Below are positions 7,796-40,653 of a stretch of 64,000 bases of DNA, one piece after another. Source of the stretch: Armatimonadota bacterium. Its GTDB lineage: Bacteria; Armatimonadota; UBA5829; DTJY01. A program made the translations under genes and the position numbers. Positions within the stretch are counted from its first letter, which is position 1; each line of letters begins with the position of its first letter. The stretch is taken from positions 1 through 64,000 of the forward strand of contig JAGONM010000015.1 of the NCBI GenBank assembly GCA_017993055.1, given 5' to 3'. Under the pieces are notes generated by a model that had not been told where the DNA came from, searched no databases, and worked only from the letters and a program-made list of their open reading frames with translations.

Positions 7796-7912
7796 GTCAG
7801 CCCTGAGTGCTCGGAGCGAAGCGGAGAGTGTATCGAAGGGCGGCATACCTCCGCCAACCCCTGCACCTGTGCCGCCGTCCTTCGATACACGCCCAGAGGC
7901 GCACTCAGGACT
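7796..7912 (+). repeat. Repeat A inverted pair
   Basis: Left arm at 7796-7842 (closing stem GCCCT/AGGGC) and right arm at 7877-7912 (closing stem GTCCT/AGGAC, tip GCC-CAGA-GGC), separated by the usual spacer (CTCCGCCAACCCCTGCACCT). It lies between the aminotransferase start and the glycosidase stop, both minus strand. Confidence 0.85.
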
Positions 7913-7954
7913 GGACGGGGGGTATGCGCGCTCAGGACCAGCGCTTCCAGTCAG

Positions 7955-9811: not shown

Positions 9812-9842
9812 TCTGACTCCCGACTCCTGACTCCTGACTTCT
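9812..9842 (+). repeat. I heptamer array between glycosidase and SIS genes
   Basis: Four tandem heptamers of TGACTCC/CGACTCC type. On the minus strand the array reads GTCAGGA-GTCAGGA-GTCGGGA-GTCAGA and ends at the ATG of the glycosidase, so it provides a GGGAG Shine-Dalgarno sequence. It starts at the stop of the upstream SIS gene. Confidence 0.8.
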
Positions 9843-9843
9843 C

Positions 9844-10554: not shown

Positions 10555-10668
10555 GGGGTGTTCCTTTCCGAGCTTGTTCGTCTGAGGTAAGGTTCAGCCG
10601 CGCGCGCCCCGAATCCTTCCGGGCAGCCCCTCCGTGCGCGCTCGATCTCAGCAGGCGGAGTTGCCACC

Positions 10669-10780
10669 GTCCTTCGATACACGCCCGGAGGCGCACTTAG
10701 GACTAGCGGGTTTTCTTCCGGTAACCTATCTCCGTCAGCCCTGAGTGCTCGGAGCGAAGCGGAGAGTGTATCGAAGGGCG
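10669..10780 (+). repeat. Repeat A inverted pair, right arm first
   Basis: Right arm at 10669-10704 (one substitution, CACTTAGGACT), the GCGGGTTTTCTTCCGGTAAC linker, then left arm at 10734-10780. It fills most of the ~290-bp gap between divergent genes and ends about 20 bp before the -35 box of the next promoter. Confidence 0.8.
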
Positions 10781-10799
10781 GCTGAGCCCGCCTTACCTA

Positions 10800-10828
10800 T
10801 TGACAGATCGGCCGATTTGTGACACAAT
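10800..10828 (+). promoter_or_regulatory. Candidate sigma70 promoter for the GHL10 gene
   Basis: TTGACA (10800-10805), a 17-bp spacer, then CACAAT (10823-10828; 4/6 match). The spacer holds a perfect 10-bp palindrome ATCGGCCGAT (10807-10816), a possible operator. The predicted transcript start is ~13 nt before the ATG at 10848, which has GAGAGGAA. Confidence 0.5.
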
Positions 10829-10847
10829 GGTGACAGAGAGGAATACT

Positions 10848-12959
10848 ATGACCACACGACCAATCGTTCCTGTTTTGCTAGTCCTTGCAGCGCTCGTTTT
10901 CTCCCATGCACCGGCGTCCGCCGACCCGCCCGAGTACCGGATGGCGTGGGTATATGGATACGCCAGCGAGTTCGCCAACCCGACGGCGACCAGCACGATG
11001 ATCAACACGCTGGCCGACAACAACTTCAACGTCGTCGTGCCGGAGATACGCATCGTCGCCGGGTGCTACTACGACTCGGACCTCGAGGAGTGGGCCAGCG
11101 ACGTCCAGCCGGGCTATGACCCTCTCGCCGACATGATCGCCAAGTCGCACGCCCGCAACATGGAGTGCTGGGCCTGGATACTCACCTATCGCGTGGCCAT
11201 GACCCCCACTCTCAGCAACTGGGCCACCTACACGAACACCGGCACCAAGAGCACCCAGCTACTCGACCCGGGCTGCCCCGGAACCCAGGACTACGTCTGC
11301 AAGATCGTGAAGGAGATCGTCACCAAGTATCCCGGCCTCGACGGCTTCAACTTCGACTACGTCCGCTATGACGGAAACCAGTACGGCTACAACCCGATCG
11401 CCAAGGAGCGCTTCCGAAGCGAGTACGGCTACTACCCGCCCACATCCACCTCGGACACGAACTGGCCGGTCTGGGCCGCATGGAAGCGCCGACAGGTCAC
11501 CGACCTGGTGAGGAAATGCTACGTCGAGGCCACGAAGATCAACCCGCAGATCAAGATGACCGTGGACACCATAGGCTGGATGGGCTCCGATCCGAACACG
11601 AACTTCGAGGGCACGCGCGCCTACTCCGAGGTGTGCCAGGACCACAAGGGCTGGATGCAGGAAGGCATCGTGGACGTCAACATCCTGATGAACTACAAGC
11701 GCGACTGGTGCACCGCGACCGAGCCTTGCTGGACATACGGCGGCAAGACCTACTGCGGCGGCGATCAGCAGGGCGATCACCGGCTCTGGAGCAACTGGCT
11801 CAAGAGCATGCAGACGTCCACCGGCAGGCACTCGATTGACGGCATCGGCGGGTACATGAACGTCATGTCCGGCATCCTCGCCCAGTGGCAGTACAGCCGC
11901 GCGAACGGCATAGGGCTCGGCGTCTTCCGCTACGGGTTCACCATCGGCCTGGAGGACCCGGCCAACCCCGGGAAGCCGGTCTTTAACTCGGGTACGACCG
12001 TGGTGACTCACGGCAGCGAGACGACGTTCTACAACACCGTCAAGGCCAATATGTTCCAGAATCCCGTCGCCGTCCCCGCCATGCCCTGGAAGGAATCGCC
12101 GACCGCCGGGATCATCTTCGGCACCGTGACCGACGCCGCCCTGAACGACCCGATCTACCAGTCGTGGATCTGCAAGGCGACCGTGACCGTCAGCGGCCCC
12201 GTGACCCGATCCATGCCGACCGACGCCACCGGCACCTACGGGTTCCTGAACCTCCCGCCGGGGACTTACACCGTCACCGCCTCTAAGTCAGGCTACCCGA
12301 GCCGCGCATACACGGCCCAGGTCCTCGTTGCCGGGCAGGTCCTTCGGCGCGACATCGATCTCGGCTTCCTCCCCTGCGTCTCGCCCACCGCGGCGAAGGC
12401 CCTCGGTGACAATACCAAGATCGCGCTCGTCGGCTCGATCGTGAGCGCCTCATTCTCGGATCACTTCTACGTCGAGGCTCCGGACCGCTCGTGCGGCATC
12501 CGGGTGAACATGGCGGGCCACGGGCGCCTGCCGGGAGACGGCGCGGACGTGAACGGCGTCTTGAAGACGAACCTCGACGGCGAGCGGTACATCGAGGCGT
12601 CGGCGGTCTCCCTTGCCGGAAGCGGCGCGATAGATCCGCTGGAGATGATCGGGCGGAGCGTAGGCGGAACTGACGGCGCGGGTCAGCCGGGCGTGGCAGG
12701 CGGCGTGGGCCTGAACAACATCGGACTGCTCGTCTCCACCGTCGGCAAGGTCACCCACGCCGAGAGCGGCTTCTTCTACGTGGACGACGGGAGCGCCCCC
12801 GCGGACGGCTCCGGCTTCGCGGGGATCAGGGTCCTCCCCTTCGGGCTCAGCGTCCCGGCGGAGAACTCCCATGTGGCAGTCACCGGCGCAAGTTCCTGCT
12901 TCAAGAGCGGCACGGACCTCCATCCGCAGATTCGCGCGACGGCGATCACCAGTTACTGA
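10848..12959 (+). CDS. Secreted GHL10-type glycoside hydrolase-like protein with Ig-like and OB-like domains
   Basis: 703 aa. Signal peptide at 1-25 ending APASA. A TIM-barrel domain of the GHL10 type (PF02638, YngK-like) follows at about 28-390: RMAWVYGYASEF, then the characteristic DGFNFDYVRY strand, then MTVDTIGWMGSDP. Next comes a carboxypeptidase-regulatory-like beta-sandwich (GTVTDAALNDP ... TYTVTASKSGY) at about 420-500. The last ~200 residues are beta-rich with repeated GSIVSASFSDHFYVEAPD / GKVTHAESGFFYVDDGS units resembling OB-like domains of extracellular proteins. The ATG at 10848 is chosen over 10800 because the signal peptide starts there. Substrate unknown; a cell-surface glycan is likely. 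Confidence 0.8.
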   Translation: MTTRPIVPVLLVLAALVFSHAPASADPPEYRMAWVYGYASEFANPTATSTMINTLADNNFNVVVPEIRIVAGCYYDSDLEEWASDVQPGYDPLADMIAKSHARNMECWAWILTYRVAMTPTLSNWATYTNTGTKSTQLLDPGCPGTQDYVCKIVKEIVTKYPGLDGFNFDYVRYDGNQYGYNPIAKERFRSEYGYYPPTSTSDTNWPVWAAWKRRQVTDLVRKCYVEATKINPQIKMTVDTIGWMGSDPNTNFEGTRAYSEVCQDHKGWMQEGIVDVNILMNYKRDWCTATEPCWTYGGKTYCGGDQQGDHRLWSNWLKSMQTSTGRHSIDGIGGYMNVMSGILAQWQYSRANGIGLGVFRYGFTIGLEDPANPGKPVFNSGTTVVTHGSETTFYNTVKANMFQNPVAVPAMPWKESPTAGIIFGTVTDAALNDPIYQSWICKATVTVSGPVTRSMPTDATGTYGFLNLPPGTYTVTASKSGYPSRAYTAQVLVAGQVLRRDIDLGFLPCVSPTAAKALGDNTKIALVGSIVSASFSDHFYVEAPDRSCGIRVNMAGHGRLPGDGADVNGVLKTNLDGERYIEASAVSLAGSGAIDPLEMIGRSVGGTDGAGQPGVAGGVGLNNIGLLVSTVGKVTHAESGFFYVDDGSAPADGSGFAGIRVLPFGLSVPAENSHVAVTGASSCFKSGTDLHPQIRATAITSY

Positions 12960-12990
12960 TCGGGGGCGGCGGCGCCCTCCGCCGCTCCTG

Positions 12991-13137
12991 CTCTCAATCC
13001 TACTCGTACTCGTACTCGTACTCGTACTCCAGTTCGCGGAATAGGACGGATATGACCGACGGGACGGATGGGACGCCCACCAATCACCACTCACCAATCA
13101 CCAATCACTAATCACTAATCACCGATCACTGGTCACC
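12991..13137 (+). repeat. D-E-F composite repeat, second copy
   Basis: D hexamers in CTCGTA orientation (12991-13030), an E segment with ATAGGACGGATATGACC (about 13031-13077) and an F array of CCAATCA/CTAATCA heptamers (13078-13131). Order and orientation equal 4185-4330. It begins ~30 bp after the GHL10 stop; a GC-rich stem (GCGGCGG/CCGCCGC) lies between and may be a terminator. Confidence 0.8.
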
Positions 13138-13142
13138 TATCT

Positions 13143-13855
13143 CCGTCAGCCCTGAGTGCTCGGAGCGAAGCGGAGAGTGTATCGAAGGGCGGCCTGGGGC
13201 GTGACGGGTGAAGCCCCCTGCCGTCATGCCGGACTCGATCCGGCATCCATCCGGAGGGTCCTGGATCCTGAATCGAGTTCAGGATGACGACACGTCGTTC
13301 AGGATGACGGGATGTTGCGGGCGACAGACACCGTCAGCCCTGAGTGCTCGGAGCGAAGCGGAGAGCGTATCGAAGGGCGGCCTTGCTCCGCCAACCCCTG
13401 CACCTGTGCCGCCGTCCTTCGATACACGCGCTGGAGCGCGCACTCAGGACTAGCGGGTTTTCTTCCGGTAACTGGTAACTGGTAACTGGTCACCGGCCGC
13501 CCACTCCGTCAGCCCTGAGTGCTCGGAGCGAAGCGGAGAGTGTGTCGAAGGGCGCCCTGGGGCGTGACGGGTGAAGCCCCCTGCCGTCATGCTGAGCCTG
13601 ACTCAGCATCCATCCGGTGGGTCCTGGATCCTGAATCGAGTTCAGGATGACGACACGTCGTTCAGGATGACGGTCGGTTGTTCAGGGTGACGCCGGCCTC
13701 TCGTCCGACACACACCGTCAGCCCCTGCACCTGTGCCGCCGTCCTTCGATACACGTCCCAGAGGACGCACTCAGGACTAGCGGGTTTTCTTCCGGCCACC
13801 CACTCCGTCAGCCCTGAGTGCTCGGAGCGAAGCGGAGAGTGTATCGAAGGGCGGC
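13143..13855 (+). repeat. A-B-A-K-A-B-A repeat block in a gene-free stretch
   Basis: In order: A left arm (13143-13192); a linker with GGGGC/GCCCC hairpin; B hairpins (13219-13320); a full A pair (13326-13452); K heptamers (13460-13497); A left arm (13506-13553); the same linker; B (13582-13690); A right arm (13739-13779); A left arm (13806-13852). Thus an A-linker-B unit of ~180 bp occurs twice as a direct duplication. With the D-E-F block it fills the ~960 bp between the GHL10 and cysK genes; I see no gene there. Confidence 0.8.
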
Positions 13856-13916
13856 CTGCTTGCCGAATGCGCCGAAAGCTGGTAACATCAGGCTATCCAC
13901 ACACCCGAGGGATATC

Positions 13917-14804
13917 ATGCTCACCGACAACATACTCGATCTCATCGGCAACACGCCGCTCTTCCGGCTCAAGGGCGAGAACATATTCGCAAAGGCTGAG
14001 TTTCTCAATCCCGGGGGGAGCATCAAGGACCGGGTCGCGCTTGCGATGCTCGAAGGGGCCGAGCGCGACGGCAAGTTGACGCCCGACTCGATCATCGTCG
14101 AGCCGACATCCGGGAACACCGGGATCGGGATCGCGCTCGTCGGGCGGGTCAAGGGGTACAAGGTCCGCATCGTGATGCCCGAGGGGATGAGCGAGGAACG
14201 GAAGAAGCTGATCCTCGCGCTCGGGGCCGAGCTGATCCTCACGCCGGACTGCGAGAGCATCGGCGGCGCGGTGAAGAGGGTCAACGAGATCGCGGCCTCC
14301 GACCCGCGGGTCTACGTCCCCCAGCAGTTCGAGAACCCCGACAACCCGAGGGTCCACTACACCCAGACGGCGGTCGAGCTCTGGCGTCAGACGGGCGGCG
14401 AGGTGGACTGCTTCGTGGCGGGCGTAGGGAGCGGCGGGACCCTGCAGGGCGTCGGGACGTTCCTCAAGGAGCACAAGCCGGGCGCGCGCATCGTGGCGGT
14501 CGAGCCGAAGAACGTGTCGGCGCTCCTCGGCCATGAGCCGGGCCTGCATCAGATTCAGGGGATCGGCGATGGGTTCATCCCGGCGGTGCTCGACGTGTCG
14601 CTGGTTGACGAGGTGATCGAGGTGACCGACGAGGACGCGATCGAGACGACGCGGCAGCTCGGGCGCGACTTCGGCCTGCTCGTGGGGATTTCGTCCGGCG
14701 CGAACGTCTGGGCGGCGCGTGAACTGGCGAAGCGCATCCCCGGCAACATCGCGACGGTCCTCCCCGACCGTGCCGAGCGGTACTTCAGCACGGCGCTGCT
14801 CTAG
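13917..14804 (+). CDS. cysK: Cysteine synthase (O-acetylserine sulfhydrylase)
   Basis: A 295-aa PLP enzyme that converts O-acetylserine and sulfide to cysteine. NPGGSIKDR at 31-39 carries the Schiff-base Lys37. TSGNTG at 64-69 binds the substrate carboxylate, and GSGGTLQGVG forms the phosphate-binding loop. PEGMSEERK and the late GISSGAN are also conserved. The length is slightly short but complete for CysK; CysM or cystathionine beta-synthase-like use cannot be ruled out. The ATG at 13917 has GAGGGAT at good spacing; earlier codons only translate an A repeat. A palindromic D array begins at the stop. Confidence 0.92.
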   Translation: MLTDNILDLIGNTPLFRLKGENIFAKAEFLNPGGSIKDRVALAMLEGAERDGKLTPDSIIVEPTSGNTGIGIALVGRVKGYKVRIVMPEGMSEERKKLILALGAELILTPDCESIGGAVKRVNEIAASDPRVYVPQQFENPDNPRVHYTQTAVELWRQTGGEVDCFVAGVGSGGTLQGVGTFLKEHKPGARIVAVEPKNVSALLGHEPGLHQIQGIGDGFIPAVLDVSLVDEVIEVTDEDAIETTRQLGRDFGLLVGISSGANVWAARELAKRIPGNIATVLPDRAERYFSTALL

Positions 14805-14887
14805 CCCGTACTCGTAATCGTACTCGTAATCGTACTCGTAATCGTAATCGGGAGCTCCGGAGAGTACGAGTACGAGTAGGAGTACGA
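14805..14887 (+). repeat. Palindromic D array between convergent genes
   Basis: A CTCGTA/ATCGTA half (14808-14850) and a GAGTAC half (14862-14886) meet at a GGGAGCTCC centre and can form a ~25-bp imperfect stem. It lies exactly between the stop codons of cysK (+) and the propeller protein (-), where a bidirectional terminator would sit. Confidence 0.75.
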
Positions 14888-14896
14888 ACGGGACGG

Positions 14897-16285
14897 CTAC
14901 CGGAACCTCACCGAGTACAGGTCCGCGTCCTTCAGCTTCACCCTCAGCTTGACCGGCTTCCCCGCGAGGGATGAGACGTCGCTCCCGCCGTTCCACTTCA
15001 CCACGCGCTCGATCTCGTCGCCGTAGATCGGCGGGCAGTCGTCCATCGCGAACCCCGGTATCGCCTTCCCCGAAGCATCCTGAAGCTCGACGACGACCTC
15101 GCCCGGGCCTGAGGTCGAGTAGTTGATCGCCAGCTCCTTCCCCTCGAAGGTGAGCGGCTTCGTGACGAACTCCCCTCCCCCGTAGCCCGCGCTCACCGAG
15201 ACGAAGCCGTCGGTGCGGACCGTCGTGCGGACCATGTGTGCGCTCGGATGGCGGTAGTGCTGCGAGTAGTAGATCGAGATCTCGCCCGGCGTCAGCTCCA
15301 GTATTCCCCAGGCGGCCATGACGTTGCGGTCGGTCCAGTTCAACTGATCGAGCCCCGGGCGCATGAAGGCTTCCGGCCACCGATGGAAGATGAGGCCGTC
15401 GCGGCCGCTCATGAACACGCCGTCGGAGACGCCCATCTCCTTGTGAGACTCGACCGCCTTGCGCTCGAGCACGAAGCGCTTCGGGAAGCCGACGTAGACG
15501 TGCGGCGCGCGGAAGTACGGGGTGATCGCGTTCGTGTAGAGCTGTTCCGGCGGCGCCCCGGTGTACGTGACCCACTCGCCCTTGCTCCAGTGGACGAAGT
15601 CCTTCGACGAGGCACGCTTGATCTCCCGCGTCCGGTTTCGATAGTCGCGGTAGTAGCAGACGTACTCGCCCCGGTTCGGGTCCCAGAAGGCGAGGTTCTG
15701 AGAGTCGAACTTGCCGTCGGTGATGATCGGCGGGCCTTCCACCTGCTTCCAGCGGTACCCGTCCGGCGACACGAACGCGTTCAGGACGTTGACCCGCTCG
15801 CCGGCGTTCTCGGGGGCGACGGCCTTGTAGATCTCGTCGGGCCTGGCGTTCGGGTTGGGGTCCTTGAACGGGGCGAACGCGTGGCCGCCGGAGACCATCC
15901 AGACGATGTTGTTGTCCTTCGAGCCGCCGAACTCATAGATTCCGAGGTTCGGCCTCGTCCAGTGGACGCCGTCTGCGCTCTCGGCGACACAGCAGACCTC
16001 GACGTGGCTCCCGGGATCGCCGGAGCCTCGGTAGTACATCCGGTACTTCTCGCCGTCGTGGAGGTATGTCACGTAGGCGCTGGTCGGGCCTTCCCAGGGC
16101 GCGTCGAAGCGGAAGACCTCCTCCCTGGTAACGGGGTGATGGAGTTGGAGGCTCGCGCCGTCCATCTTCTCGATGAGATAGTCGTCCCAGAGCGGCTCGA
16201 GCCGCCCGCCGATATCTATCGTGCCCTGCGCGCAGAGCGCGGACGAGACCAGTGCCAGCATGAGAATGATCCTCCAGGTGCGCAT
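14897..16285 (-). CDS. Secreted five-bladed beta-propeller, GH43/GH32-like
   Basis: 462 aa with a signal peptide (IILMLALVSSALCA, cleavage near 19). The body shows the repeating blade pattern of furanosidase-like propellers: YVTYLHDGEKYRMYYRG, SADGVHWTRPNLGIYEFGGS, SPDGYRWKQVEGPP, FWDPNRGEYVCYYRD, KDFVHWSKGEW. The C-terminal ~90 residues form a beta-sandwich (ELAINYSTSGPGEVVVELQD). Such proteins are common in polysaccharide-degrading bacteria but few are characterised, so the substrate is not assigned. The ATG at 16285 has GGAGGA 8 bp upstream. The gene is convergent with cysK. Confidence 0.75.
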   Translation of the reverse strand: MRTWRIILMLALVSSALCAQGTIDIGGRLEPLWDDYLIEKMDGASLQLHHPVTREEVFRFDAPWEGPTSAYVTYLHDGEKYRMYYRGSGDPGSHVEVCCVAESADGVHWTRPNLGIYEFGGSKDNNIVWMVSGGHAFAPFKDPNPNARPDEIYKAVAPENAGERVNVLNAFVSPDGYRWKQVEGPPIITDGKFDSQNLAFWDPNRGEYVCYYRDYRNRTREIKRASSKDFVHWSKGEWVTYTGAPPEQLYTNAITPYFRAPHVYVGFPKRFVLERKAVESHKEMGVSDGVFMSGRDGLIFHRWPEAFMRPGLDQLNWTDRNVMAAWGILELTPGEISIYYSQHYRHPSAHMVRTTVRTDGFVSVSAGYGGGEFVTKPLTFEGKELAINYSTSGPGEVVVELQDASGKAIPGFAMDDCPPIYGDEIERVVKWNGGSDVSSLAGKPVKLRVKLKDADLYSVRFR

Positions 16286-16365
16286 AGGTGCATTCCTCCG
16301 GGGGGATTCTAGCACCCCGGGGGCACGACGGGCAAGTACGCAGGGAAACCCGCCCTCTCCGTCGC

Positions 16366-16446
16366 ACAAGTCCCATAGGTCCCATCAGTCTCATAGGTCC
16401 CATGGGACCCATAGGACGGATAAGACCAATATGACGAATGGGATGA
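16366..16446 (+). repeat. E 9-nt array upstream of the second four-helix-bundle gene
   Basis: Tandem 9-nt units of GTCCCATAG/GTCTCATAG type run to a CCATGGGAC centre and then reappear in inverted form (AGGACGGATAAGACC). The array is thus both periodic and palindromic. It ends ~30 bp before the gene start at 16476. Confidence 0.8.
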
Positions 16447-16475
16447 AGGACACGTCACCCGGAAAGGAGCCTGTC

Positions 16476-17036
16476 ATGCCGGACGGCTTCATCGCGCCGC
16501 ACGGCGGCTATGAGGCCCTGCTCTCCTACCGGAAGGCCCTCCTCGTCTTCGATGCCACCGTTTTCTTCTGCGAACGCTTCATAGACAGGCGCAGCCGCAC
16601 CTTCGACCAGATGGTTCAGGCCGCCCGATCCGGCAAGCAGAACATCGTGGAGGGCAGCGAGGCCGCCGCCGCCTCCAGTTCCACCGAGATCAAGCTCACC
16701 AACGTCGCCCGGGCAAGCCTGCAGGAGCTTCTCGAAGACTACAAGGACTTCCTTCGCCTGAAGAAGCTCCCGATCTGGGAGAAGGACCATCCGCAGGCGA
16801 AGGTCATCCGCGACCTGGCCTACGGGGCGAACGTGACCTACGGGACGTATGAGACGTATGTCGAGCAGGGCTCGCCCGAGGTCGCCGCGAACACCGTCAT
16901 CTGCCTGATCCACCAGGCCAACTACCTCCTCGACCGGCAGATCAGGAGCCTGGAGAAGAAGTTCCTGGAGGAGGGCGGCGTCCGCGAGCGGATGATGCGC
17001 GCCCGCCTCGACCACCGAGGCAAGCAGGGGCGCTAG
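16476..17036 (+). CDS. Four-helix-bundle protein with suffix domain
   Basis: A 186-aa helical protein. The core GYEALLSYRKALLVFDATVFFCERF ... DQMVQAARSGKQNIVEGSEA ... TNVARASLQELLEDYKDFL has the family pattern of S23/IVP-like bundles. The C-terminal extension LIHQANYLLDRQIRSLEKKFLEEGG matches the separate suffix-domain form of this family (TIGR04258-like). The function of such free-standing proteins is not established. The ATG at 16476 has AAAGGAG 6 bp upstream, a strong ribosome-binding site. E arrays lie on both sides, the downstream one starting at the stop codon. No reverse transcriptase is nearby. Confidence 0.82.
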   Translation: MPDGFIAPHGGYEALLSYRKALLVFDATVFFCERFIDRRSRTFDQMVQAARSGKQNIVEGSEAAAASSSTEIKLTNVARASLQELLEDYKDFLRLKKLPIWEKDHPQAKVIRDLAYGANVTYGTYETYVEQGSPEVAANTVICLIHQANYLLDRQIRSLEKKFLEEGGVRERMMRARLDHRGKQGR

Positions 17037-17130
17037 TCCCACGAGTCTCATCAGTCTCATCTGTCTCATCAGTCTCATCGGTCTCATGTGTCCCACAAGT
17101 CCCATGGGACGAATAGGACGGATAAGACCA
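17036..17130 (+). repeat. E 9-nt array downstream of the second four-helix-bundle gene
   Basis: Five clean GTCTCATCN units, then GTCCCACAA and GTCCCATGG, then the inverted half (GACGAATAG, GACGGATAA, GACC). The period of nine is exact. The downstream half matches the array at 16366-16446. Confidence 0.85.
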
Positions 17131-17151
17131 CTTCACCCAAGGCTCGAGGCT

Positions 17152-17286
17152 GTTTGCGCAGGCCCGAATCTCAATGAGGGCCTGCAAACCGGCCTTCCCC
17201 GAGATGCATCTCTGCGGTTGTTCATTCTGAGCGTGGAGGCTTTGCCATTTTGCCAAACCATATGTGGCAGAGCCTTTGGCAAAGCC
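17152..17286 (-). other. Two hairpins after the RepA-like ATPase gene
   Basis: One hairpin pairs GCAGGCCC (17158-17165) with GGGCCTGC (17178-17185), extended outward by GTTTGC/AAAC. The other pairs GGCTTTGCCA (17238-17247) with TGGCAAAGCC (17277-17286) and holds a second stem TGCCA/TGGCA inside. They fill the 253 bp between two convergent genes and may terminate transcription, though neither has a T-tract. No gene is seen here. Confidence 0.5.
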
Positions 17287-17289
17287 TTA

Positions 17290-18834
17290 CTACTCCGGAC
17301 CGAGGCTCGGCTCGGGCAGCCGATAGCTGACGGACAGCCCAGTCCGCATCTTACACAGCTCCCCAGACTCAGCAGCCCCTCGCAGTGCCCGATCGACAGC
17401 ACGCTGGGCAATCCCCTCCACCTTCGCCAGCTCGATCAGGTCCTTCCTGGGGAGAGAGCCGCCCGCATCCGCAAGCGCGCGGAGGACGAAGTCGAGCGCC
17501 GCCTGCGTCCGGTCCGCCTTCGCCGACGACTCCCCGACGTACCGCACCTCAACCGAGTCGCCCTCCGCGTCCGCAACCTCCACCTCGAACGCCGGGACCT
17601 CCCCCTCCTCGCGCGACTTCGCCTGCTCCACCTGCATCCGCCCGGACCGGAGCTTCCTCAGGAACAGGTAGCTGGAGAGCGCCCCGCGGATCGCCGAGCT
17701 TCCCCGGAGCCGCTGGCCCGCGTCGTTCGACACCTGGCTCTGCTTCCGCGCGTGGTGGACGATCAGCAGGGTGCAACCCCGCTCCTTCGCAAGCGCCCCG
17801 AGCCGCCCGAGCAGGCCCGCCATCTCCGTGCTGGAGTTCTCGTCGAGGCCGTGCACCATCGCCAGCGGGTCAATGATCACCAGCCCGGCCCGGGCCTCCT
17901 CGATCCGCCGGCCGAGTTCCGCCAGGCCCGAAGGCTCGTCGAGCCGGATCGCCCCGCAGACCACCGATAGCGGCGCGTCGGACCCATCCGCCCCATCAGT
18001 CTCGTCGGTCTCATCAGTCCCATGGGACGTATGGGACGCGCAGGACGGATATGACAGGGACAGCCCCCGGTGGAGCTTCGTCATCCGCCGGGAGAGCAGG
18101 TTCCGCCCGCTCTCAGTGTCGAGGATCAGCACCCCCGTCGGGCTCGTCGCGAACTGCCCGAGCACCGGCAGATCGAGCGCCACGCACTGCGCGATGTGGT
18201 ACGCGAGCCACGACTTCCCCACCCCCGGGTCGCCCGCGATCATCGTGATCCCATGCCTGGGGACGAGCTGCTCGACCACCCACTCGACCGGCGGGACCTC
18301 CCCGGTCACGATCTCCCGGTAGGAGAGCATCGGCGGGCCGTCCGGCGCGAACCCCTCCGCCAGGCCGAGCGCGAGGCCCCTCGCCTCATCCCGCAGTTCC
18401 CCGATCGGGGAGTCCTCCCTCAGCGCGCGGGCGGAGAGGTCGAACATCCTCAGCATCAACCTCCTCCGCAGGAACGCCCGGTGCAGGCGGTCGGCAAAGT
18501 ACGACAGCCCGGCGGCGCACGGCTCGGACGCGAGCAGGTGGTCCAGGTAGCCGGACTCCTCCTCGTCGAGGAGAGGAGTCCCCCGCTCGACGCGCTCCCT
18601 GATCCAGCGGCAGTCCGGGGCCTTCGCGCCCTGGGAGAACATCACGCGGAGGGCGTCGTAGATGAGGGCGTGGTGCTCCCGGTAGAAGTGGTCGAGCGTG
18701 ATGGTTGACTCGACCCGCGCGAGTTCGGCGGGTTCGATCGGCGTGCATCGGGACATCGCGTAGCATCCGATGAGCCCCTGCTCCGCGCCGATGTCGTGCG
18801 GGAGCGGGCGGTCCTGGGCGTTCGGGCGTTTCAT
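17290..18834 (-). CDS. DnaB N-terminal domain plus RepA-like RecA-fold ATPase
   Basis: 514 aa. Residues ~10-160 match the helical DnaB N-terminal domain (EQGLIGCYAMSRC ... LDHFYREHHALIYDAL). A RecA-like domain of the RepA/AAA_25 class follows: Walker A GDPGVGKS at 201-208, LILDTESG at 237-243, Walker B VIIDPL at 319-324, and IVHHARK at 358-364. A C-terminal winged-helix-like segment ends the protein. Such proteins act as replication helicases or ATPases of plasmids and phages; no primase or origin is visible, so this may be an element remnant. Residues ~261-287 (THETDE-like, acidic) are encoded by an E array. The ATG at 18834 follows AGGAGGAGG. Confidence 0.8.
   Translation of the reverse strand: MKRPNAQDRPLPHDIGAEQGLIGCYAMSRCTPIEPAELARVESTITLDHFYREHHALIYDALRVMFSQGAKAPDCRWIRERVERGTPLLDEEESGYLDHLLASEPCAAGLSYFADRLHRAFLRRRLMLRMFDLSARALREDSPIGELRDEARGLALGLAEGFAPDGPPMLSYREIVTGEVPPVEWVVEQLVPRHGITMIAGDPGVGKSWLAYHIAQCVALDLPVLGQFATSPTGVLILDTESGRNLLSRRMTKLHRGLSLSYPSCASHTSHGTDETDETDGADGSDAPLSVVCGAIRLDEPSGLAELGRRIEEARAGLVIIDPLAMVHGLDENSSTEMAGLLGRLGALAKERGCTLLIVHHARKQSQVSNDAGQRLRGSSAIRGALSSYLFLRKLRSGRMQVEQAKSREEGEVPAFEVEVADAEGDSVEVRYVGESSAKADRTQAALDFVLRALADAGGSLPRKDLIELAKVEGIAQRAVDRALRGAAESGELCKMRTGLSVSYRLPEPSLGPE
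17981..18060 (-). repeat. E array in frame inside the RepA-like ATPase gene
   Basis: The array has the same CTCATCAGTCCCATGGGAC centre and AGGACGGATATGACAGG flank as the intergenic E arrays. Antisense to the array, the gene reads SHGTDETDETDGADGSD without a stop. It sits between the switch-like DTESG block and the Walker B strand. Confidence 0.85.
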
Positions 18835-18955
18835 GGTCGGCCTCCTCCTGGGGGTCGGTCGAACAAATGTTCCCCCATATATGAAGGGCGCGAAAATGCC
18901 CGAAATGAATGAACGGACCGAGAGGATTTCGTGAATTCTTTGGGAGGGGGGCGGG

Positions 18956-19019
18956 TGAGTGATTAGTGATGGGTGATGAGTGATTAGTGATGGGTGATTG
19001 GTGATGGGTGATGAGTGAC
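18956..19019 (+). repeat. F heptamer array
   Basis: Nine heptamers of GTGATTA/GTGATGG/GTGATGA type in tandem. The array is followed by the linker ACGTGCAAGAGCCGCCCC and then repeat B. The same F-linker-B junction occurs inverted at 25742-25860. The ~120 bp before it (18835-18955) hold only the upstream region of the ATPase gene. Confidence 0.85.
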
Positions 19020-19035
19020 GTGCAAGAGCCGCCCC

Positions 19036-19145
19036 GCCGTCATGCTGAGCTTGACTCAGCATCCATCCGGGGCTTGTGGATCCTGAATCGAGTTCAGGAT
19101 GACGGTCGGTCGTTCAGGGTGACGCCGGTACTACATGCGACACAC
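19036..19145 (+). repeat. B repeat block
   Basis: Hairpin TGCTGAG-CTTGA-CTCAGCA, then TCCTGAA-TCGAG-TTCAGGA, then two half-copies (TTCAGGATGAC, TTCAGGGTGAC), ending GGTACTACATGCGACACACACCG before repeat A. This block is nearly identical to those at 25625-25757 (inverted) and 40473-40603. Confidence 0.85.
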
Positions 19146-19147
19146 AC

Positions 19148-20097
19148 CGTCAGCCCTGAGTGCTCGGAGCGAAGCGGAGAGTGTATCGAAGGGCGGCCTT
19201 GCTCCACCAACCTCTGTACCTATGCCACCGTCCTTCGATACACGTCCCGGAGGACGCACTCAGGACTAGCGGGTCTTCTTCCGGCCACCTATCTCCGTCA
19301 GCCCTGAGTGCTCGGAGCGAAGCGAAGAGTGTATCGAAGGGCGGCCTTGCTCCGCCAACCCCTGCACCTGTGCCGTCGTCCTTCGATACACGCGCTGGAG
19401 CGCGCACTCAGGACTAGCGGGTTTTCTTCCGGTAACTGGTAACTGGTCACTGGTCACCCACACCGTCAGCCCTGAGTGCTCGGAGCGAAGCGGAGAGTGT
19501 ATCGAAGGGCGGCCTTGCTCCGCCAACCCCTGCACCTGTGCCATCGTCCTTCGATACACGCGCCGGAGCGCGCACTCAGGACTAGCGGGTTTTCTTCCGG
19601 TAACTGGTTACCGGCCACTGGTCACCCACACCGTCAGCCCTAAGTGCTCGGAGCGAAGCGGAGAGTGTATCGAAGGGCGTTCTTGCCGGTGCCGCCGTCC
19701 TTCGATACACGCGCCGGAGCGCGCACTCAGGACTAGCGGGTTTTCTTCCGGTAACTGATTACCGGTCACTGGTCACCCACTCCGTCAGCCCTGAGTGCTC
19801 GGAGCGAAGCGGAGAGTGTATCGAAGGGCGTTCTTGCCGGTGCCGCCGTCCTTCGATACACGCGCCGGAGCGCGCACTCAGGACTAGCGGGTCTTCTTCC
19901 GGTAACTGGTAACTGGTCACTGGTCACCCACACCGTCAGCCCTGAGTGCTCGGAGCGAAGCGGAGAGTGTATCGAAGGGCGGCCTTGCTCCGCCAACCCC
20001 TGCACCTGTGCCGTCGTCCTTCGATACACGCGCCGGAGCGCGCACTCAGGACTAGCGGGTTTTCTTCCGGTAACTGGTTACCGGTCACTGGTCACCC
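19148..20097 (+). repeat. Tandem array of six repeat A units with K heptamer spacers
   Basis: Six A inverted pairs with left arms at about 19148, 19297, 19463, 19634, 19784 and 19934. Each pair is followed by AGCGGGTTTTCTTCCGG and K heptamers (GGTAACT, GGTCACT). Unit length is 150-170 bp. Units 4 and 5 have lost part of the central spacer. The array ends at the stop of the DUF6785 gene. With the F and B blocks it fills 1.26 kb with no gene. Confidence 0.85.
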
Positions 20098-20098
20098 A

Positions 20099-22075
20099 TC
20101 ACGGCCAGGGGAACGTCGGGGTCGGGGCGCCGGTGAGCGCGCCGATCAGCGCCCAGACGACCGCCATCCCGAACTCCCCCAGGATCATCCCCAGGAACCA
20201 GGGCCGCGCCTTCACGTACAGGCTCATCCCCCCGTAGCGCAGGATCAGCCCCTTCACCAGCCACGCGACGAAGCACGCGAACCAGAACACCGAAGTCGTC
20301 CACGAGATGCAGAGCGCGTAACCCAGCGGGTGGAACGGCCACCAGAAGAACATCGCCCGCATGTACGCCAGGAACGCCGTCACGATCACCCCGACCGCGA
20401 AGAACACCGGCGCCTGCCACGTGAGCGCCGTCGAGCTCGCCATGTGCTGCTGGTACTCGCCGAACGCCCACAGGTTGTTGCCCTGGTAGACATATGTATA
20501 CAGGGTGATGCCGCCCTTCGTGTACGGCAGCCATATCTGGATGAACCCGGCGACCGCCAGCGCCGCCAGGATCGCGATGAGAAACACCGGCAGGAACGCG
20601 CGGCGGCGGACGTTGCTGCCGTCCGATATCTTCAGGCCGTCGAGGAAGCCCGTCAGCAGGAGGCCGCGCTGGTCTCGCAGGAACGCCCCGTCGAAGAAGG
20701 TAAGCATCATCACGTTGCCCGGGCCGAGCGAGTGGACCGGCGCGAACATCCGGTAGAAGTCTATCGGGCGGAAGCTGGTCTCGGTCATCAGCATGCCGGC
20801 CTCCGCGGTGCTCCTCGCCATCACGAGCGCGATCACGAATATGAACACGCCGAACTCGAGCAGGGCGATCCAGAGCGACATCCCGGCCAGGTGGCACCAC
20901 CCCATTATCAGCGCCAGGCTGAGGAACAGCCCCCAGAAGGCGACGCTGTACGGAATCATCTCCTGCTCGTCGTCGGCCTTCTCCATCATGAACGCCGCGC
21001 GCCCGACCTTCCGCAGGTGCGGCAGCGAGATGTAGACCAGGTAGCCCGCCAGGACGCAGTAGGCCCCCGCGGTCTGGTAGCCGATGAAGAGCGGCGTGCC
21101 GTACATCGGCATCACCTGCGGCTCCATGTTGAAAGAGGTCGCCACGACGTCCTGAACGCGCGCCAGTATCGCGAAGAACCATATCGCGAAGAGCACGTCA
21201 GAGGGCAGGAGGAAGAAGAAGCCGATCGCCGCGAAGGAGAGGTACATCGTGGTGAAGTACATGCTGTCCCACGGCGGGTTCACGAGGTACTGGTTGAGGT
21301 TCTGGGCCAGGTTGACCGCCGGGATGTTCGGGTACCAGTTGTGCAGGCCGTTGAAGGCGAATATTGCGGCCGGGAGGGCGACTCCCCCCCAGAAGAGCCT
21401 GTTGCCGAAGAGCGGGCCGCCCGGCTGGTCGTCCCTAACGAGCGCGAGCGGCGGCTGAACGAGCGGGAAGGCGAGCTTCTCGTTGTCCACCCACTGCCGC
21501 CGAAGGATCGTCGCCAGGCACAGGAAGGCGAAGATGACGAGCAGTACGAGCGCGCTCCAGGCGAGGAGCGGCACGACCCACGCGCTCCACGGGATGCCCT
21601 CCCCGGAGCGGAGCCCCTCGAAGAACCTGAGGGCCTCGAACTGCTGTGTGCCGCCGTCCGGGTCGAACGGGACCATCCACTTCTTGATGTTCGGGAAGAA
21701 CAGCTCCTGCCAGCGGTTTGCCGGGTTGGCGAAGTAGTTCGGCGTGACGAGCAGGGGGATGATCTTCTCGATAATGCCGCGCGACGATATCATGGAGGCG
21801 ACGAGCATCATGCAGTAGATCATCATCAGCTCGCCGGCGCTGAGGCCGAGCGCGCGCCTGAGCCTCTGCATGCCCTTGTTCAGGAGGAGCAGGAAGAAGA
21901 ATATGCCGATGACGGCGGGCGGCATCTGGAGGAAGCCGATCTGGATGCTCATGATGACCAGCTCGCCCCAGGATACGACGAAGCACACGACGGCCACCAG
22001 GATGAGGCCGACGATTATCGCGCGGAGGGATATGCCGGTGCGCTCGATGCGGTTGTCGGTGCCGGATACTTCCAT
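20099..22075 (-). CDS. Multi-pass membrane protein of the DUF6785 type
   Basis: 658 aa with about fourteen hydrophobic segments and two large soluble loops (about 110-165 and 475-500). Recognisable stretches are SAGELMMIYCMMLVASMISS, RRQWVDNEKLAFPL and RSTAEAGMLMTETSFRP. The family is known as uncharacterised DUF6785 membrane proteins from uncultured Armatimonadota/Planctomycetota-like genomes, with a distant oligopeptide-transporter appearance. That assignment is from memory and needs a profile search. The ATG at 22075 is taken; no clear Shine-Dalgarno sequence. It is isolated between repeat blocks; function unknown, transport probable. Confidence 0.7.
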   Translation of the reverse strand: MEVSGTDNRIERTGISLRAIIVGLILVAVVCFVVSWGELVIMSIQIGFLQMPPAVIGIFFFLLLLNKGMQRLRRALGLSAGELMMIYCMMLVASMISSRGIIEKIIPLLVTPNYFANPANRWQELFFPNIKKWMVPFDPDGGTQQFEALRFFEGLRSGEGIPWSAWVVPLLAWSALVLLVIFAFLCLATILRRQWVDNEKLAFPLVQPPLALVRDDQPGGPLFGNRLFWGGVALPAAIFAFNGLHNWYPNIPAVNLAQNLNQYLVNPPWDSMYFTTMYLSFAAIGFFFLLPSDVLFAIWFFAILARVQDVVATSFNMEPQVMPMYGTPLFIGYQTAGAYCVLAGYLVYISLPHLRKVGRAAFMMEKADDEQEMIPYSVAFWGLFLSLALIMGWCHLAGMSLWIALLEFGVFIFVIALVMARSTAEAGMLMTETSFRPIDFYRMFAPVHSLGPGNVMMLTFFDGAFLRDQRGLLLTGFLDGLKISDGSNVRRRAFLPVFLIAILAALAVAGFIQIWLPYTKGGITLYTYVYQGNNLWAFGEYQQHMASSTALTWQAPVFFAVGVIVTAFLAYMRAMFFWWPFHPLGYALCISWTTSVFWFACFVAWLVKGLILRYGGMSLYVKARPWFLGMILGEFGMAVVWALIGALTGAPTPTFPWP

Positions 22076-22242
22076 GTCGGCTGCTCGTGAGCGGCGGAGG
22101 GGACCCGCGCCGGGCGTACTTCGGATGCGGCGTCTCCCTGAGTATATCGCCGGGGGCGCGCGTTGTCAACGGATGGGGAGAGTGGGCAAGCTCAGAGGCC
22201 GTTCTCCTCGAGTAGCCCGAAGGGCGTACCGAGAGGCGCGCG

Positions 22243-22762
22243 AGGCCGTCCTTCGATACACGCCCGGAGGCGCACTCAGGACTAGCGGGGCTTCTTCCTG
22301 TAACCTATCACCGTCAGCCCTGAGTGCTCGGAGCGAAGCGGAGAGTGTATCGAAGGGCGCGGGGAAGCAGAACCCCCTCGGCCCGGAGGCCGGTCCCCCT
22401 TGACAAGGGGGACAGCCCGGACGCTCCCCTCCTTATCAAGGAGGGGCCGGGGGAGGTTCCGGGAGGCCGTCCTTCGATACACGCGCCGGAGCGCGCACTC
22501 AGGACTAGCGGGTCTTCTTCCTGCAACCTATCTCCGTCAGCCCTGAGTGCTCGGAGCGAAGCGGAGAGTGTATCGAAGGGCGGCTGGGAAGCAGAACCCC
22601 CTCGGCCCGGAGGCCGGTCCCCCTTGACAAGGGGGACAGCGGAGTCGCTCCCCTCCTTATCAAGGAGGGGCCGGGGGAGGTTCCGGAAGGCCGTCTCCTT
22701 CGATACGCTGCGCTACTCAGGACAGGCTTCGATACACGCCCGGAGGCGCACTCAGGACTGGA
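22243..22762 (+). repeat. Repeat A pairs carrying C elements in their spacers
   Basis: A right arm (22245-22283), A left arm (22312-22360), C block (22363-22462), A right arm (22468-22503), A left arm (22534-22582), C block (22590-22688), a degenerate A fragment (about 22689-22723) and a final right arm (22723-22760). In both C copies the element replaces the normal A spacer. C holds CCCCCTT-GAC-AAGGGGG and CCCCTCCTT-ATC-AAGGAGGGG hairpins. The block fills most of the 786-bp gap; no gene is seen. Confidence 0.8.
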
Positions 22763-22861
22763 CGGTTGCGGCTGCCGGCCACTCGCTCCGAGCCGGCTGT
22801 TGAACGCGAGGCGACTATCTGATATGATGTCCCAGGCCAAATCCGCAGGCGATCGGCAGGG

Positions 22862-23701
22862 ATGGGCGTGTCACCCGAGGGATTCACAGTCTTCAGCCAG
22901 GAACTCCACTACGACGAGAGCATTCGGGCGATCGAATCGTTCGCCGACGCCCCGCGCCGCAAGGAGCTTCATGCCCGCATCTCGGAGGCCCTCCCCTACT
23001 CCTCATACACCACCAGGGACCGCGTCGCGACGAAGATCATCCAGCGGTATTTCGTGAACCCGGACGGCACGTTTCCCGCGGCCGCGTTCCTGAAGATGGT
23101 CTCGGCGCAAAAGAGCGACGAGGTCCGGCGCGACCTTATCTACTGGCGCGCGGCCCGGACCGACCCGTTGATCGAGGCAGTCGCGGGCGAGCTGTTCCAC
23201 GCCTACTTCGTGCTGGGCAAGATCCCGCAGGGGTACGGCGAGCCGGAGTTCCACATGCTGAACACGGCGACTCTCTTCTCGGTGGACTCGGTCATCACGC
23301 GGGACTTCGCCATCGAGTACGCCCGGAGGGTCTGGGGGTTCGACAGCCCCCGGACGATCGCGCTCGCGCTCCGCATCATGCGGCAGGCGGGGATACTCGA
23401 CACGATATCGGTGACCCTGGGGCGCAGGCGGGTGCACGGGTACTACCCTCTGCCGCACATCCCGCGCCCCGAGGTTTTCGCGTACTGCATCTGCGAGGAG
23501 TTCCTGAGCGAGAGCCTGCTGATCTCGACGGACAGGCTCCGGAACTCGGCGTTTGCGAAGGTTTTCCTGCTGAGCGGCCTTCAGATGGACTCGCTGGCGA
23601 AGGCGGCGGAGAAGAAGAGGCTCCTGGCGGCCGACGGGCGGTACTGGCGCCTCGTCCACGGGAGCCTGGGGGAACTGGTGGAGGCGCTGGGCGGGGCGTG
23701 A
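22862..23701 (+). CDS. BrxA/DUF1819-like helical protein (orphan)
   Basis: 279 aa, mostly helical, no signal peptide. The pattern TRDRVATKIIQRYF ... FLKMVSAQKSDEVRRDLIYWRAARTDPLIEAVAGELF ... SPRTIALALRIMRQAGILD resembles BrxA (DUF1819), a small DNA-binding accessory protein of BREX phage-defence systems, but the protein is longer by ~80 residues. The match is by eye and uncertain. None of the other BREX genes (brxB, brxC, pglX, pglZ, brxL) is in the window. The ATG at 22862 has a weak AGGG upstream; a GTG at 22868 is an alternative. An F array begins at the stop codon. It sits alone between repeat blocks. Confidence 0.45.
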   Translation: MGVSPEGFTVFSQELHYDESIRAIESFADAPRRKELHARISEALPYSSYTTRDRVATKIIQRYFVNPDGTFPAAAFLKMVSAQKSDEVRRDLIYWRAARTDPLIEAVAGELFHAYFVLGKIPQGYGEPEFHMLNTATLFSVDSVITRDFAIEYARRVWGFDSPRTIALALRIMRQAGILDTISVTLGRRRVHGYYPLPHIPRPEVFAYCICEEFLSESLLISTDRLRNSAFAKVFLLSGLQMDSLAKAAEKKRLLAADGRYWRLVHGSLGELVEALGGA

Positions 23702-24466
23702 TTGGTGATGAGTGATGAGTGATGGGTGATGAGTGAACACCACACCGTCATGCTGAGCTTGACTCAGCATCCATCCGGAGGGTCCTGGATCCTGAATCGA
23801 GTTCAGGATGACGACACGTCGTTCAGGATGAGGGTCGGTTGTTCAGGGTGACGCCGGCCTTTCGTCTGACACACACCGTCAGCCCCTGCACCTGTGCCGC
23901 CGTCCTTCGATACACGTCCCGGAGGACGCACTCAGGACTAGCGGGTCTTCTTCCGGCCACCTATCTCCCTCAGCCCTGAGTGCTCGGAGCGAAGCGGGGA
24001 GTGTATCGAAGGGCGGCCTTGCTCCACCAACCTCTGTACCTATGCCACCGTCCTTCGATACACGTCCCGGAGGACGCACTCAGGACTAGCGGGTTTTCTT
24101 CCGACCACCTATCTCCGTCAGCCCTGAGTGCTCGTAGCGAAGCGGAGAGTGTATCGAAGGGCGCGGGGAAGCAGAACCCCCTCGGCCCGGAGGCCGGTCC
24201 CCCTTGACAAGGGGGACAGCCCGGAAGCTCTCCTCCTTGCGCAAGAAGCCACACCTGCTCCCCTCCTTGTCAAGGAGGGGCCGGGGGAGGTTCCGGGAGA
24301 GGCCGTCCCATTGCTCGAACCTTGAAACCGAGGAGGTTACTGCAGGGGCCAAGCATTTGCCCTTCGGACTGAGACCCGGCGTCGGACATGACCGCAAATG
24401 CTTCGCCCGATTCGAGGACGATTACGAGTACGAGTAGGAGTACGAGTCGGAGCAGGGGCGGGGGCG
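23702..24466 (+). repeat. Left arm of the mirrored repeat cassette around the NlpC/P60 gene
   Basis: Order left to right: F (23702-23736), B (23747-23870), A right arm and full A pairs (23879-24090), A left arm (24116-24163), C (24164-24305), G hairpin (24345-24408), D hexamers (24413-24455). Every element reappears in reverse order and inverted at 25268-25861. It also contains one extra A pair that the right arm lacks. No gene is seen. Confidence 0.85.
24345..24408 (+). repeat. G hairpin, left copy
   Basis: GGG...CCC outer and AAGCATTTGC/GCAAATGCTT inner stem around a ~30-nt loop containing CTGAGACCCGGCGTCGGACA. Near-identical (inverted) to 25324-25387. Confidence 0.8.
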
Positions 24467-25267
24467 CTACACCCCCGGCATCCTCCGCGCGCCCCAGTAG
24501 TTCGCCTCGTATGGCTCATCCGTCAGGCGGTTTATCCCGACGCCCGCGCCCCCGGATGAGTGAATGAACGTCCCGTCGCCGACCGCCATCCCGACGTGCG
24601 TGATCCGGGCCTTGTCCTCGCCACCCGCGAAGAAGACCAGGTCGCCCGCAACGAGATCGCCCTTCTCGACCGGGACCGCCCTCGGATCGCCCGCCTGGAT
24701 GCCCGCGTCGCGGAGCAGGTGGATGCCGTTCAGCTTGTAGCTGAGCTGCACGAACCCCGAGCAGTCAATGCCGAACGGACTGGAGCCGCCCCAGAGGTAC
24801 GGCACGCCGATGAACCGCCGGCCGGTCTCGACGATCTCCGCGCCGGTCGCGCCGAACGGGAGCATCTGGTCGCCCGCCGGAGTCACGCTCACTTCGTTCG
24901 CCGGCACCCATGCCTCCCGTCCGTCCGGAAGCCGCACGCGCGCAAACTTCCCGTCGGTCCCGAGCGCCTCCATCGCGGCAGTGACGACGAGGATCGTGTG
25001 ATGGCCCGATGACGCGTCGGGCGCCCGGTACGCGTATGAGAAGGCGGGCAGTACCGCCGCTATCCGGGCCGGGCTCCACTCGCCCTCGCGCACCCACCGG
25101 GCCTCGATCCAGCCGTGGTAGCCGTCCCAGGTCCGTATGTAAAGCCAGCCGCCTTCTTCCTTCTCGATCTCGACCGGCTGGCCCATTATCGCCTGGCTCA
25201 CCTGCTCGGAGTTGCGGGTGGTCTCGGCGTACATCGCCGCCACGTTCTTCGTGATCGTTCCGTGCAT
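24467..25267 (-). CDS. NlpC/P60 peptidoglycan endopeptidase with SH3 domains
   Basis: 266 aa. N-terminal bacterial SH3-like domains (about 1-65 and 70-130: EGGWLYIRTWDGYHGWIEARWV, then RVRLPDGREAWVPANEV) precede an NlpC/P60 cysteine peptidase domain. Catalytic Cys169 lies in GIDCSGFVQ, His224 in ITHVGMAVGDG, and a third polar residue near His236 in FIHSSGG. The layout equals gamma-D-glutamyl-L-diamino-acid endopeptidases such as YkfC. No signal peptide is visible, so it may act on murein peptides in the cytoplasm (recycling). The ATG at 25267 follows AGGAGG from the flanking D array. The gene stands at the centre of a mirrored repeat cassette. Confidence 0.88.
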   Translation of the reverse strand: MHGTITKNVAAMYAETTRNSEQVSQAIMGQPVEIEKEEGGWLYIRTWDGYHGWIEARWVREGEWSPARIAAVLPAFSYAYRAPDASSGHHTILVVTAAMEALGTDGKFARVRLPDGREAWVPANEVSVTPAGDQMLPFGATGAEIVETGRRFIGVPYLWGGSSPFGIDCSGFVQLSYKLNGIHLLRDAGIQAGDPRAVPVEKGDLVAGDLVFFAGGEDKARITHVGMAVGDGTFIHSSGGAGVGINRLTDEPYEANYWGARRMPGV

Positions 25268-25861
25268 TCTTTCCTCCTGCTCCTACTCCTACTCGTAATC
25301 GTACTCGTACTCGTACTCCAATCGGGCGAAGCATTTGCGCTCATGTCCGACGCCGGGTCTCAGTCCGAAGGGCAAATGCTTGGCCCCTACAGTAACCTGC
25401 TCCTACTCGGGTTCAGAGTCCAGCGAATGGGACGGCCTCCCGGAACCTCCCCCAGCCCCTCCTTGACAAGGAGGGGAGCAGGTGTGGCTTCTTGCTCAAG
25501 GAGAGAGCTTCCGGGCTGTCCCCCTTGTCAAGGGGGACCGGCCTCCGGGCCGAGGGGGTTCTGCTTCCCCGCGCCCTTCGATACACTCTCCGCTTCGCTC
25601 CGAGCACTCAGGGCTGACGGTGTGTGTCGCATGTAGTACCGGCGTCACCCTGAACGACCGACCGTCATCCTGAACGACGTGTCGTCATCCTGAACTCGAT
25701 TCAGGATCCAGGACCACCCCGGATGGATGCTGAGTCAAGCTCAGCATGACGGCGGGGCGGCTCTTGCACGTCACTCATCACCCATCACTAATCACTCATC
25801 ACCCATCACCAATCACTCATCACCCATCACTAATAACTCATCACCCTTCACCTGCCTGATG
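25268..25861 (+). repeat. Right arm of the mirrored repeat cassette around the NlpC/P60 gene
   Basis: Order left to right: D (25275-25318), G (25324-25387), short D and E linker (25398-25434, GGGTTCAGAGTCCAG), C (25437-25575), A left arm inverted (25573-25620), B inverted (25625-25757), linker, F inverted (25770-25858). It abuts the korC stop codon. No gene is seen. Confidence 0.85.
25324..25387 (-). repeat. G hairpin, right copy
   Basis: Inverted copy of 24345-24408 with the same AAGCATTTGC/GCAAATGCTT stem; a single loop difference (GAGCGC instead of GACCGC) is evident. Confidence 0.8.
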
Positions 25862-40437: not shown

Positions 40438-40472
40438 GCGCGGGGAGCACATGCCGGATGCCGCCAACCTGC

Positions 40473-40653
40473 CGTCATGCTGAGCTTGACTCAGCATCCA
40501 CCCGGGGGGTCCTGGATCCTGAATCGAGTTCAGGATGACCACACGTCGTTCAGGATGACGGGCGGTCGTTCAGGATGACGCCGGTACTACATGCGACACA
40601 CACCGTCAGCCCTGAGTGCTCGGAGCGAAGCGGAGAGTGTATCGAAGGGCGGC
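40473..40653 (+). repeat. B-A repeat block
   Basis: B hairpins (TGCTGAG-CTTGA-CTCAGCA and TCCTGAA-TCGAG-TTCAGGA), half-copies, the GGTACTACATGCGACACACACCG junction, and a single A left arm (40604-40652). Lies between convergent stop codons; no right arm follows. Confidence 0.85.

What the first reader, a model, noticed from the sequence alone, without database searches (positions are those of the whole stretch)
23702..25861. NlpC/P60 gene at the centre of a 2.2-kb mirrored, nested repeat cassette
The gene at 24467-25267 is flanked by six repeat families in mirror order: F-B-A-C-G-D on the left, D-G-C-A-B-F inverted on the right. G (~64 bp) differs at very few positions between arms, and C and B are close as well. 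Such order on both sides is unlikely by independent insertion. It suggests a unit that was duplicated by inversion, or a mobile cassette whose ends are assembled from hairpins.
Basis: seen in the sequence. Interest (0 to 1): 0.82.

Follow-up and report, generated by a model that had tools for sequence, protein, structure and literature searches.

The report
Flipped gene between mirrored hairpin repeats
In an Armatimonadota bacterium one ordinary cell-wall enzyme gene has been turned around in place, and an inverted copy of the hairpin-rich DNA beside it now lies on its other side; this is a clean example of a known type of small rearrangement, not a mobile cassette.

Summary
The mirror is real. 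Both spacers around the NlpC/P60 gene (24467-25267, minus) are filled by inverted arms. It has two layers. The inner block (half of A, then C, G, D; 24115-24456 against 25276-25620) is a true inverted duplication, 92% identical over 349 columns, with a 30-bp loop and a spacer found nowhere else in the genome searches. The outer F and B blocks match other places in the contig better than each other. The order F-B-A-C-G recurs in many spacers of this genome, and 7 of 18 neighbouring composites lie opposite, so mirror order alone means little. In all four family relatives (three other genera) NlpC converges on porG, 30 to 1400 bp apart; here it lies on porG's strand, and in G003 the flanking genes are otherwise collinear. 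Best explanation: a single-gene inversion accompanied by inverted duplication of the adjacent REP/REPIN-type array, followed by turnover of the outer modules. The mobile-cassette reading is not supported: the gene is native and syntenic, and no transposase lies in the unit. Whether the segment still flips by homologous recombination is open.

The parts
22862..23701 (+). left neighbour: 279-aa gene, weak Pfam BrxA match (20.9 bits, below the cut-off of 23)
   Evidence: ortholog next to NlpC in G003, elsewhere in G002 and G004; no PADLOC match
23702..23736 (+). F: 7-mer array (TGATGAG/TGATGGG), left arm
23746..23857 (+). B1-B2-B3, left arm: REPIN-like pair of CGTC-ended palindromes; subtype of window 13564-13729 (93%)
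23899..24163 (+). two A units (Aa-Ab, period 148 bp), left arm
24115..24456 (+). inner block, left copy (Ab-C-G-H-D1-D2): inverted duplicate of 25276-25620, 92% identity
   Evidence: unique loop, H and D1
24166..24299 (+). C+G hairpin element (TTGACAAGG palindromes) with a unique 30-bp loop
24336..24412 (+). D1: AAGCATTTGC...GCAAATGCTT palindrome
24413..24456 (+). D2: 6-mer array (GAGTAC/GAGTAG), copy of the NlpC 5' leader now placed 3' of the gene
24467..25267 (-). NlpC/P60 endopeptidase with N-terminal SH3 domain, inverted relative to all four family relatives
25276..25620 (-). inner block, right copy (D2-D1-H-G-C-Ab inverted); D2 with AGGAGG is the gene's 5' leader, as in G003
25639..25751 (-). 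B3-B2-B1, right arm; subtype of window 40468-40651 (97%) and 18956-19195
25771..25852 (-). F array, right arm, ending about 10 bp before the porG stop codon
25862..26410 (-). right neighbour: porG (2-oxoacid:ferredoxin oxidoreductase gamma subunit), followed by porB and porA

Best explanation
A lineage-specific inversion of one gene, accompanied by inverted duplication of the intergenic repeat block that lay next to the gene's start. Before the event the order was BrxA-like gene > REP array ending in a 6-mer leader > NlpC start...stop > < porG stop, with a short convergent spacer. The hairpin-rich array is a likely place for fork stalling and template switching or staggered breakage. The segment carrying NlpC was turned round, and the inner array (half A-C-G-H-D1-D2) was left or copied on both sides. 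The outer F-B modules were then replaced or added by the ongoing turnover of these arrays (ectopic conversion or insertion). Shown: the inverted orientation, the inverted duplication and its uniqueness, the mosaic outer blocks, the short spacers and leader in relatives. Inferred: that inversion and duplication were one event, the replication or repair mechanism, and the order of steps.
For: porG and NlpC are convergent in G001, G002, G003 and G004 (spacers of 1400, 30, 94 and 30 bp) but co-directional here; in G003 the whole BrxA-NlpC-porG-porB-porA-recN stretch is otherwise collinear. The NlpC tree puts the window's gene inside the family clade between G003 and G002/G004, so the inversion is derived. 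The inner block is duplicated inverted and is unique. The 6-mer leader lies before the NlpC start in G003 in the same orientation and shares ACGAGTA(A/G)GAGTAGGAGCA(A/G)(G)AG with the right arm; the left arm holds a copy of this leader behind the stop codon. About 10 bp remain between the arm and each of the NlpC and porG stop codons, in line with a break inside a 30-bp convergent spacer as in G002. The arm elements are absent from G001, G002 and G004. All other composites between 7.8 and 24.5 kb of the window lie on +; only the right arm is inverted.
Against: No genome of the same genus is held, so the one-armed intermediate was not seen. G003 has an F array beside its leader, but in the opposite orientation and without B, A, C, G or D1. 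The outer F-B blocks are not each other's closest relatives, so duplication of the whole arm needs a later overwrite. G001's NlpC lies on a long branch and may not be an ortholog. Inversion by ordinary recombination between two arms that already existed gives the same final map.
Confidence: 0.66

Rival explanations
1. Arms first, flip later: an inverted copy of the array formed on the porG side, and homologous recombination between the two inverted arms then flipped, and perhaps still flips, the 0.8-kb gene segment. The arms act as a reversible inversion site that moves NlpC between two transcriptional contexts.
For: Inverted repeats of 342 bp with exact runs of 97, 51 and 48 bp flank about 820 bp; the gene is flipped; the gene carries its own leader and RBS with it, so it would stay translatable in both orientations.
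Against: The arms have diverged (17 mismatches and 11 gap positions in the inner block; different outer subtypes), so they are not being homogenised quickly. No recombinase was found among the eight proteins of 16-28 kb scanned. No population data.
Confidence: 0.22
2. Mobile cassette: hairpin ends carry the gene from place to place (composite-transposon-like).
For: Hairpin elements on both sides; REP-type repeats are thought to be moved by RAYT transposases, and the genome has two Y1 transposases.
Against: The gene is syntenic with porG throughout the family; the complete arm occurs nowhere else; no transposase in the unit; the outer ends of the two arms are different subtypes.
Confidence: 0.03
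3. Coincidence of canonical arrays: two independent F-B-A-C-G composites, each in the usual order, happen to lie in opposite orientation on the two sides of a gene.
For: The order recurs (B>A 19 to 9, A>C 15 to 0, C>G 19 to 8) and 7 of 18 neighbouring composites are opposite. The outer F-B blocks fit this.
Against: Cannot explain the uniquely shared 30-bp loop, H and D1-D2.
Confidence: 0.05
4. Assembly artefact: short reads mis-joined at the inverted repeat.
For: The genome is a draft of 82 contigs with 100-N gaps in repeat arrays elsewhere; orientation of a segment between inverted repeats is a classic short-read error.
Against: No N in the cassette; arms differ every 97 bp or less, so reads of 150 bp with pairs can phase them; the arms carry different subtypes and indels rather than exact copies.
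Confidence: 0.04

Closest known systems
[quoted passage not shown] Furuta et al. 2011 in Helicobacter pylori, as cited in PMC8963470 and PMC4671568; the original is not held)
   Same: an inversion whose two breakpoints carry inverted copies of a segment that was single before
   Different: here the inverted segment is one gene and the duplicated segment is an intergenic array of palindromic repeats; outer parts since overwritten; one-armed ancestor not seen
Staggered-break inversion with flanking inverted duplications (Drosophila; e.g. PMC3355041, PMC7584159, listed and not read in full)
   Same: the same end product
   Different: eukaryotic chromosomes, kb to Mb inversions
REP/REPIN elements, GTAG- and CGTC-tagged palindromes (PMC3116915, PMC3733652)
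   Same: intergenic palindromes in inverted pairs; B begins and ends with CGTC next to a short palindrome; Y1 transposases in the genome
   Different: several families chained in a fixed order; cognate transposase not shown; Armatimonadota not mentioned in PMC3733652
Invertons / phase-variable invertible segments (e.g. PMC11892184)
   Same: a segment between inverted repeats, found in inverted state
   Different: long imperfect arms instead of short recombinase sites, no recombinase beside it, no evidence of both orientations

Membership tests
DNA duplication associated with inversion | segment inverted relative to relatives with collinear flanks | tested here: met
   convergent in 4 of 4 family relatives, co-directional here; flanks collinear in G003
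DNA duplication associated with inversion | inverted copies of one segment at the two breakpoints | tested here: met
   24115-24456 and 25276-25620, 92%; uniquely shared features
DNA duplication associated with inversion | single copy of that segment at one breakpoint in the uninverted relative | tested here: inconclusive
   G003 has only the D2 leader (and an F array in the other orientation) on the expected side
REPIN (REP doublet) | two REP palindromes in inverted orientation able to form a long hairpin | tested here: met
   B z=-4.0, A z=-4.3, C-G z=-2.3, D1 z=-2.2 as single-stranded DNA
REPIN (REP doublet) | dispersed intergenic copies in the genome | tested here: met
   for B, A and C-G; D1 has only a few distant copies
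REPIN (REP doublet) | cognate RAYT transposase flanked by the same REP | tested here: inconclusive
   two Y1 transposases; a weak D1-like copy lies 28 bp from one (E=0.06)
Composite transposon / mobile cassette | transposase, and copies or cargo at other sites | tested here: not met
   no second complete arm, gene syntenic in the family, no transposase in the unit
Inverton | both orientations in the population | not testable with these tools
   one assembly, no reads, no congener
Inverton | site-specific recombinase nearby | tested here: inconclusive
   none among eight proteins of 16-28 kb; the rest of the genome was not scanned for recombinases

The most novel reading that the evidence does not exclude
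The hairpin arrays act as a standing inversion site: recombination between the mirrored arms flips a single cell-wall endopeptidase gene between the transcriptional contexts of the BrxA-like gene and the por operon, while the gene's purine-rich leader travels with it, giving a reversible context switch without a dedicated recombinase.
Probability: 0.1. Interest if true: 0.6.

Novelty: new member of a known kind. Interest (0 to 1): 0.36.

Why it matters
It shows, at near-base resolution and at the scale of one gene, how palindromic repeat arrays can go with inversion plus inverted duplication and so change operon neighbours; and it shows that mirror order of repeat families can arise simply because such arrays are built in a fixed order. 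Both points help in reading repeat-rich spacers of poorly studied phyla. It would matter more if the segment were shown to flip today.

Tried and rejected
Composite transposon or cargo cassette: rejected on synteny and on the absence of other complete arms. Simple 239-bp deletion linking the arms through the 10-bp direct repeat at 23876 and 24115: considered, dropped because the right arm's F-B and B-A junctions are of the 19.0/40.5-kb type. Full-arm duplication in a single event without later change: rejected for the same reason. A second test case, the gene at L041:15836-18403 between mirrored A elements: its homologs in four relatives lie without the neighbours within 1.5 kb, so no orientation test was possible. 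Class-level outgroups (L033-L035) lack porG beside NlpC. The original DDAI paper is not held.

Full report
Observation. The gene at 24467-25267 (minus) encodes an NlpC/P60 endopeptidase with an N-terminal SH3 domain. The spacers on both sides are filled with repeats that form inverted pairs: 24115-24232/25503-25620 (118 nt, 99%), 24233-24299/25437-25503 (67 nt, 97%), 24330-24456/25276-25402 (127 nt, 92%), 23781-23885/25611-25715 (105 nt, 91%) and F arrays outside. A global alignment of the arms shows the same, with an extra 0.2 kb (additional A units) on the left. The mirror is real.

What the elements are. B, A, C-G and D1 fold as hairpins made of two inverted palindromes (z from -2.2 to -4.3, strong for B and A). 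F and D2 are arrays of 7-mers and 6-mers. B, A and C-G occur at dozens of intergenic places in this Armatimonadota genome (the phylum follows from the named relatives). They are of the REP/REPIN kind; B carries the CGTC ends described for one of the two large REP superfamilies (PMC3733652). G001, G002 and G004 have no match to the arm; G003 has only F- and D2-type arrays; some genomes of the same class have B-like elements at about 70-90%.

Order is a rule here, so mirror order is weak evidence. In the stretches examined the elements follow one another in a preferred direction: B>A 19 times against 9, A>C 15 against 0, C>G 19 against 8, F>B 4 against 0; neighbouring composites are in the same orientation 11 times and opposite 7 times (the seven include this pair). 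Two composites on either side of a gene will thus often look mirrored. This sample was taken from repeat-rich stretches and is not the whole genome.

Which part is truly duplicated. The inner block Ab-C-G-H-D1-D2 (24115-24456 and 25276-25620) is 92% identical over 349 columns, and the next best matches in the stretches examined cover only its Ab-C-G part. The G loop of about 30 bp and the H spacer occur at these two places only, and D1 at high identity only here. By contrast the right outer block is closest to 40468-40651 (97%) and 18956-19195 (87%, sharing the F-CGTGCAAGAGCC-B spacer), and the left outer block to 13564-13729 (93%); left against right is 86%. The outer modules were therefore placed or overwritten independently.

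The gene is inverted. In G003 the order BrxA-like, NlpC, porG, porB, porA, recN matches the window, but NlpC converges on porG; the same convergent pair stands in G002 and G004 (30-bp spacer) and in G001 (1.4 kb apart, another gene between). In the window NlpC is on porG's strand. The NlpC tree nests the window's gene between G003 and G002/G004 (clade 98/99; inner fork 82/83), so the window state is derived. G003 also shows what lay at the start side: a 6-mer leader with the same core as the window's right arm, and in the same orientation. In the window this leader sits at the gene's start (right arm) and, as a copy, behind its stop (left arm). Ten bases remain between arm and NlpC stop and about ten between arm and porG stop, which suggests a break inside a short convergent spacer.

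Mechanism. The simplest account is inversion of the NlpC segment with the adjacent array kept or copied on both sides, as in DNA duplication associated with inversion in bacteria (cited in PMC8963470 and PMC4671568) or staggered-break inversions in Drosophila. Long hairpins are plausible sites of fork stalling, strand switching and breakage. This step is inference. The alternative, arms first and then homologous recombination between them, gives the same map and is not excluded. Exact runs of up to 97 bp could support such recombination, but the divergence of the arms argues against frequent exchange.

Artefact. The genome is a draft with 100-N gaps in repeat arrays elsewhere, but there is no N in the cassette, and differences at intervals of at most 97 bp let ordinary paired reads phase the arms. 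An artefact is unlikely, not excluded.

Verdict. A true and tidy structure, ordinary in kind: a single-gene inversion with inverted duplication of a REP-type array. The mobile-cassette reading is not supported. Active flipping is possible and untested.

Noticed in passing
window 18956-20098 and 22242-22706: Tandem arrays of A units (148-168 bp period) and of A-C-G units (224 bp period): composites grow by tandem duplication as well as by chaining.
   Followed up: partly
window 7794-24456: All F-B-A-C-G composites between 7.8 and 24.5 kb lie on the + strand, while other contigs are mixed; a link with replication direction was not tested.
   Followed up: no
L051:5049-5149 (G000:C30:39049-39148): A weak D1-like element lies about 28 bp from a Y1 (RAYT-like) transposase fragment, a possible cognate pair.
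   Followed up: no
L039:4662-8187 (G000:C26, beside genes that look like recF, dciA and rnpA): Two genes with low GC3 sit between a recF-like and a dciA-like gene, flanked by mirrored B-A-C-G composites (about 80% identity).
   Followed up: no
window 2440-3051, 4176-4212, 12987-13029, 14796-14887, 25276-25319: Purine-rich GAGTA 6-mer arrays recur; the one before NlpC (also in G003) supplies the ribosome-binding region. Whether such arrays often serve as leaders was not tested.
   Followed up: partly
L038:13219-13318, L039:1178-1277, L044:1574-1673: Runs of exactly 100 N inside repeat arrays, probably scaffold gaps.
   Followed up: no
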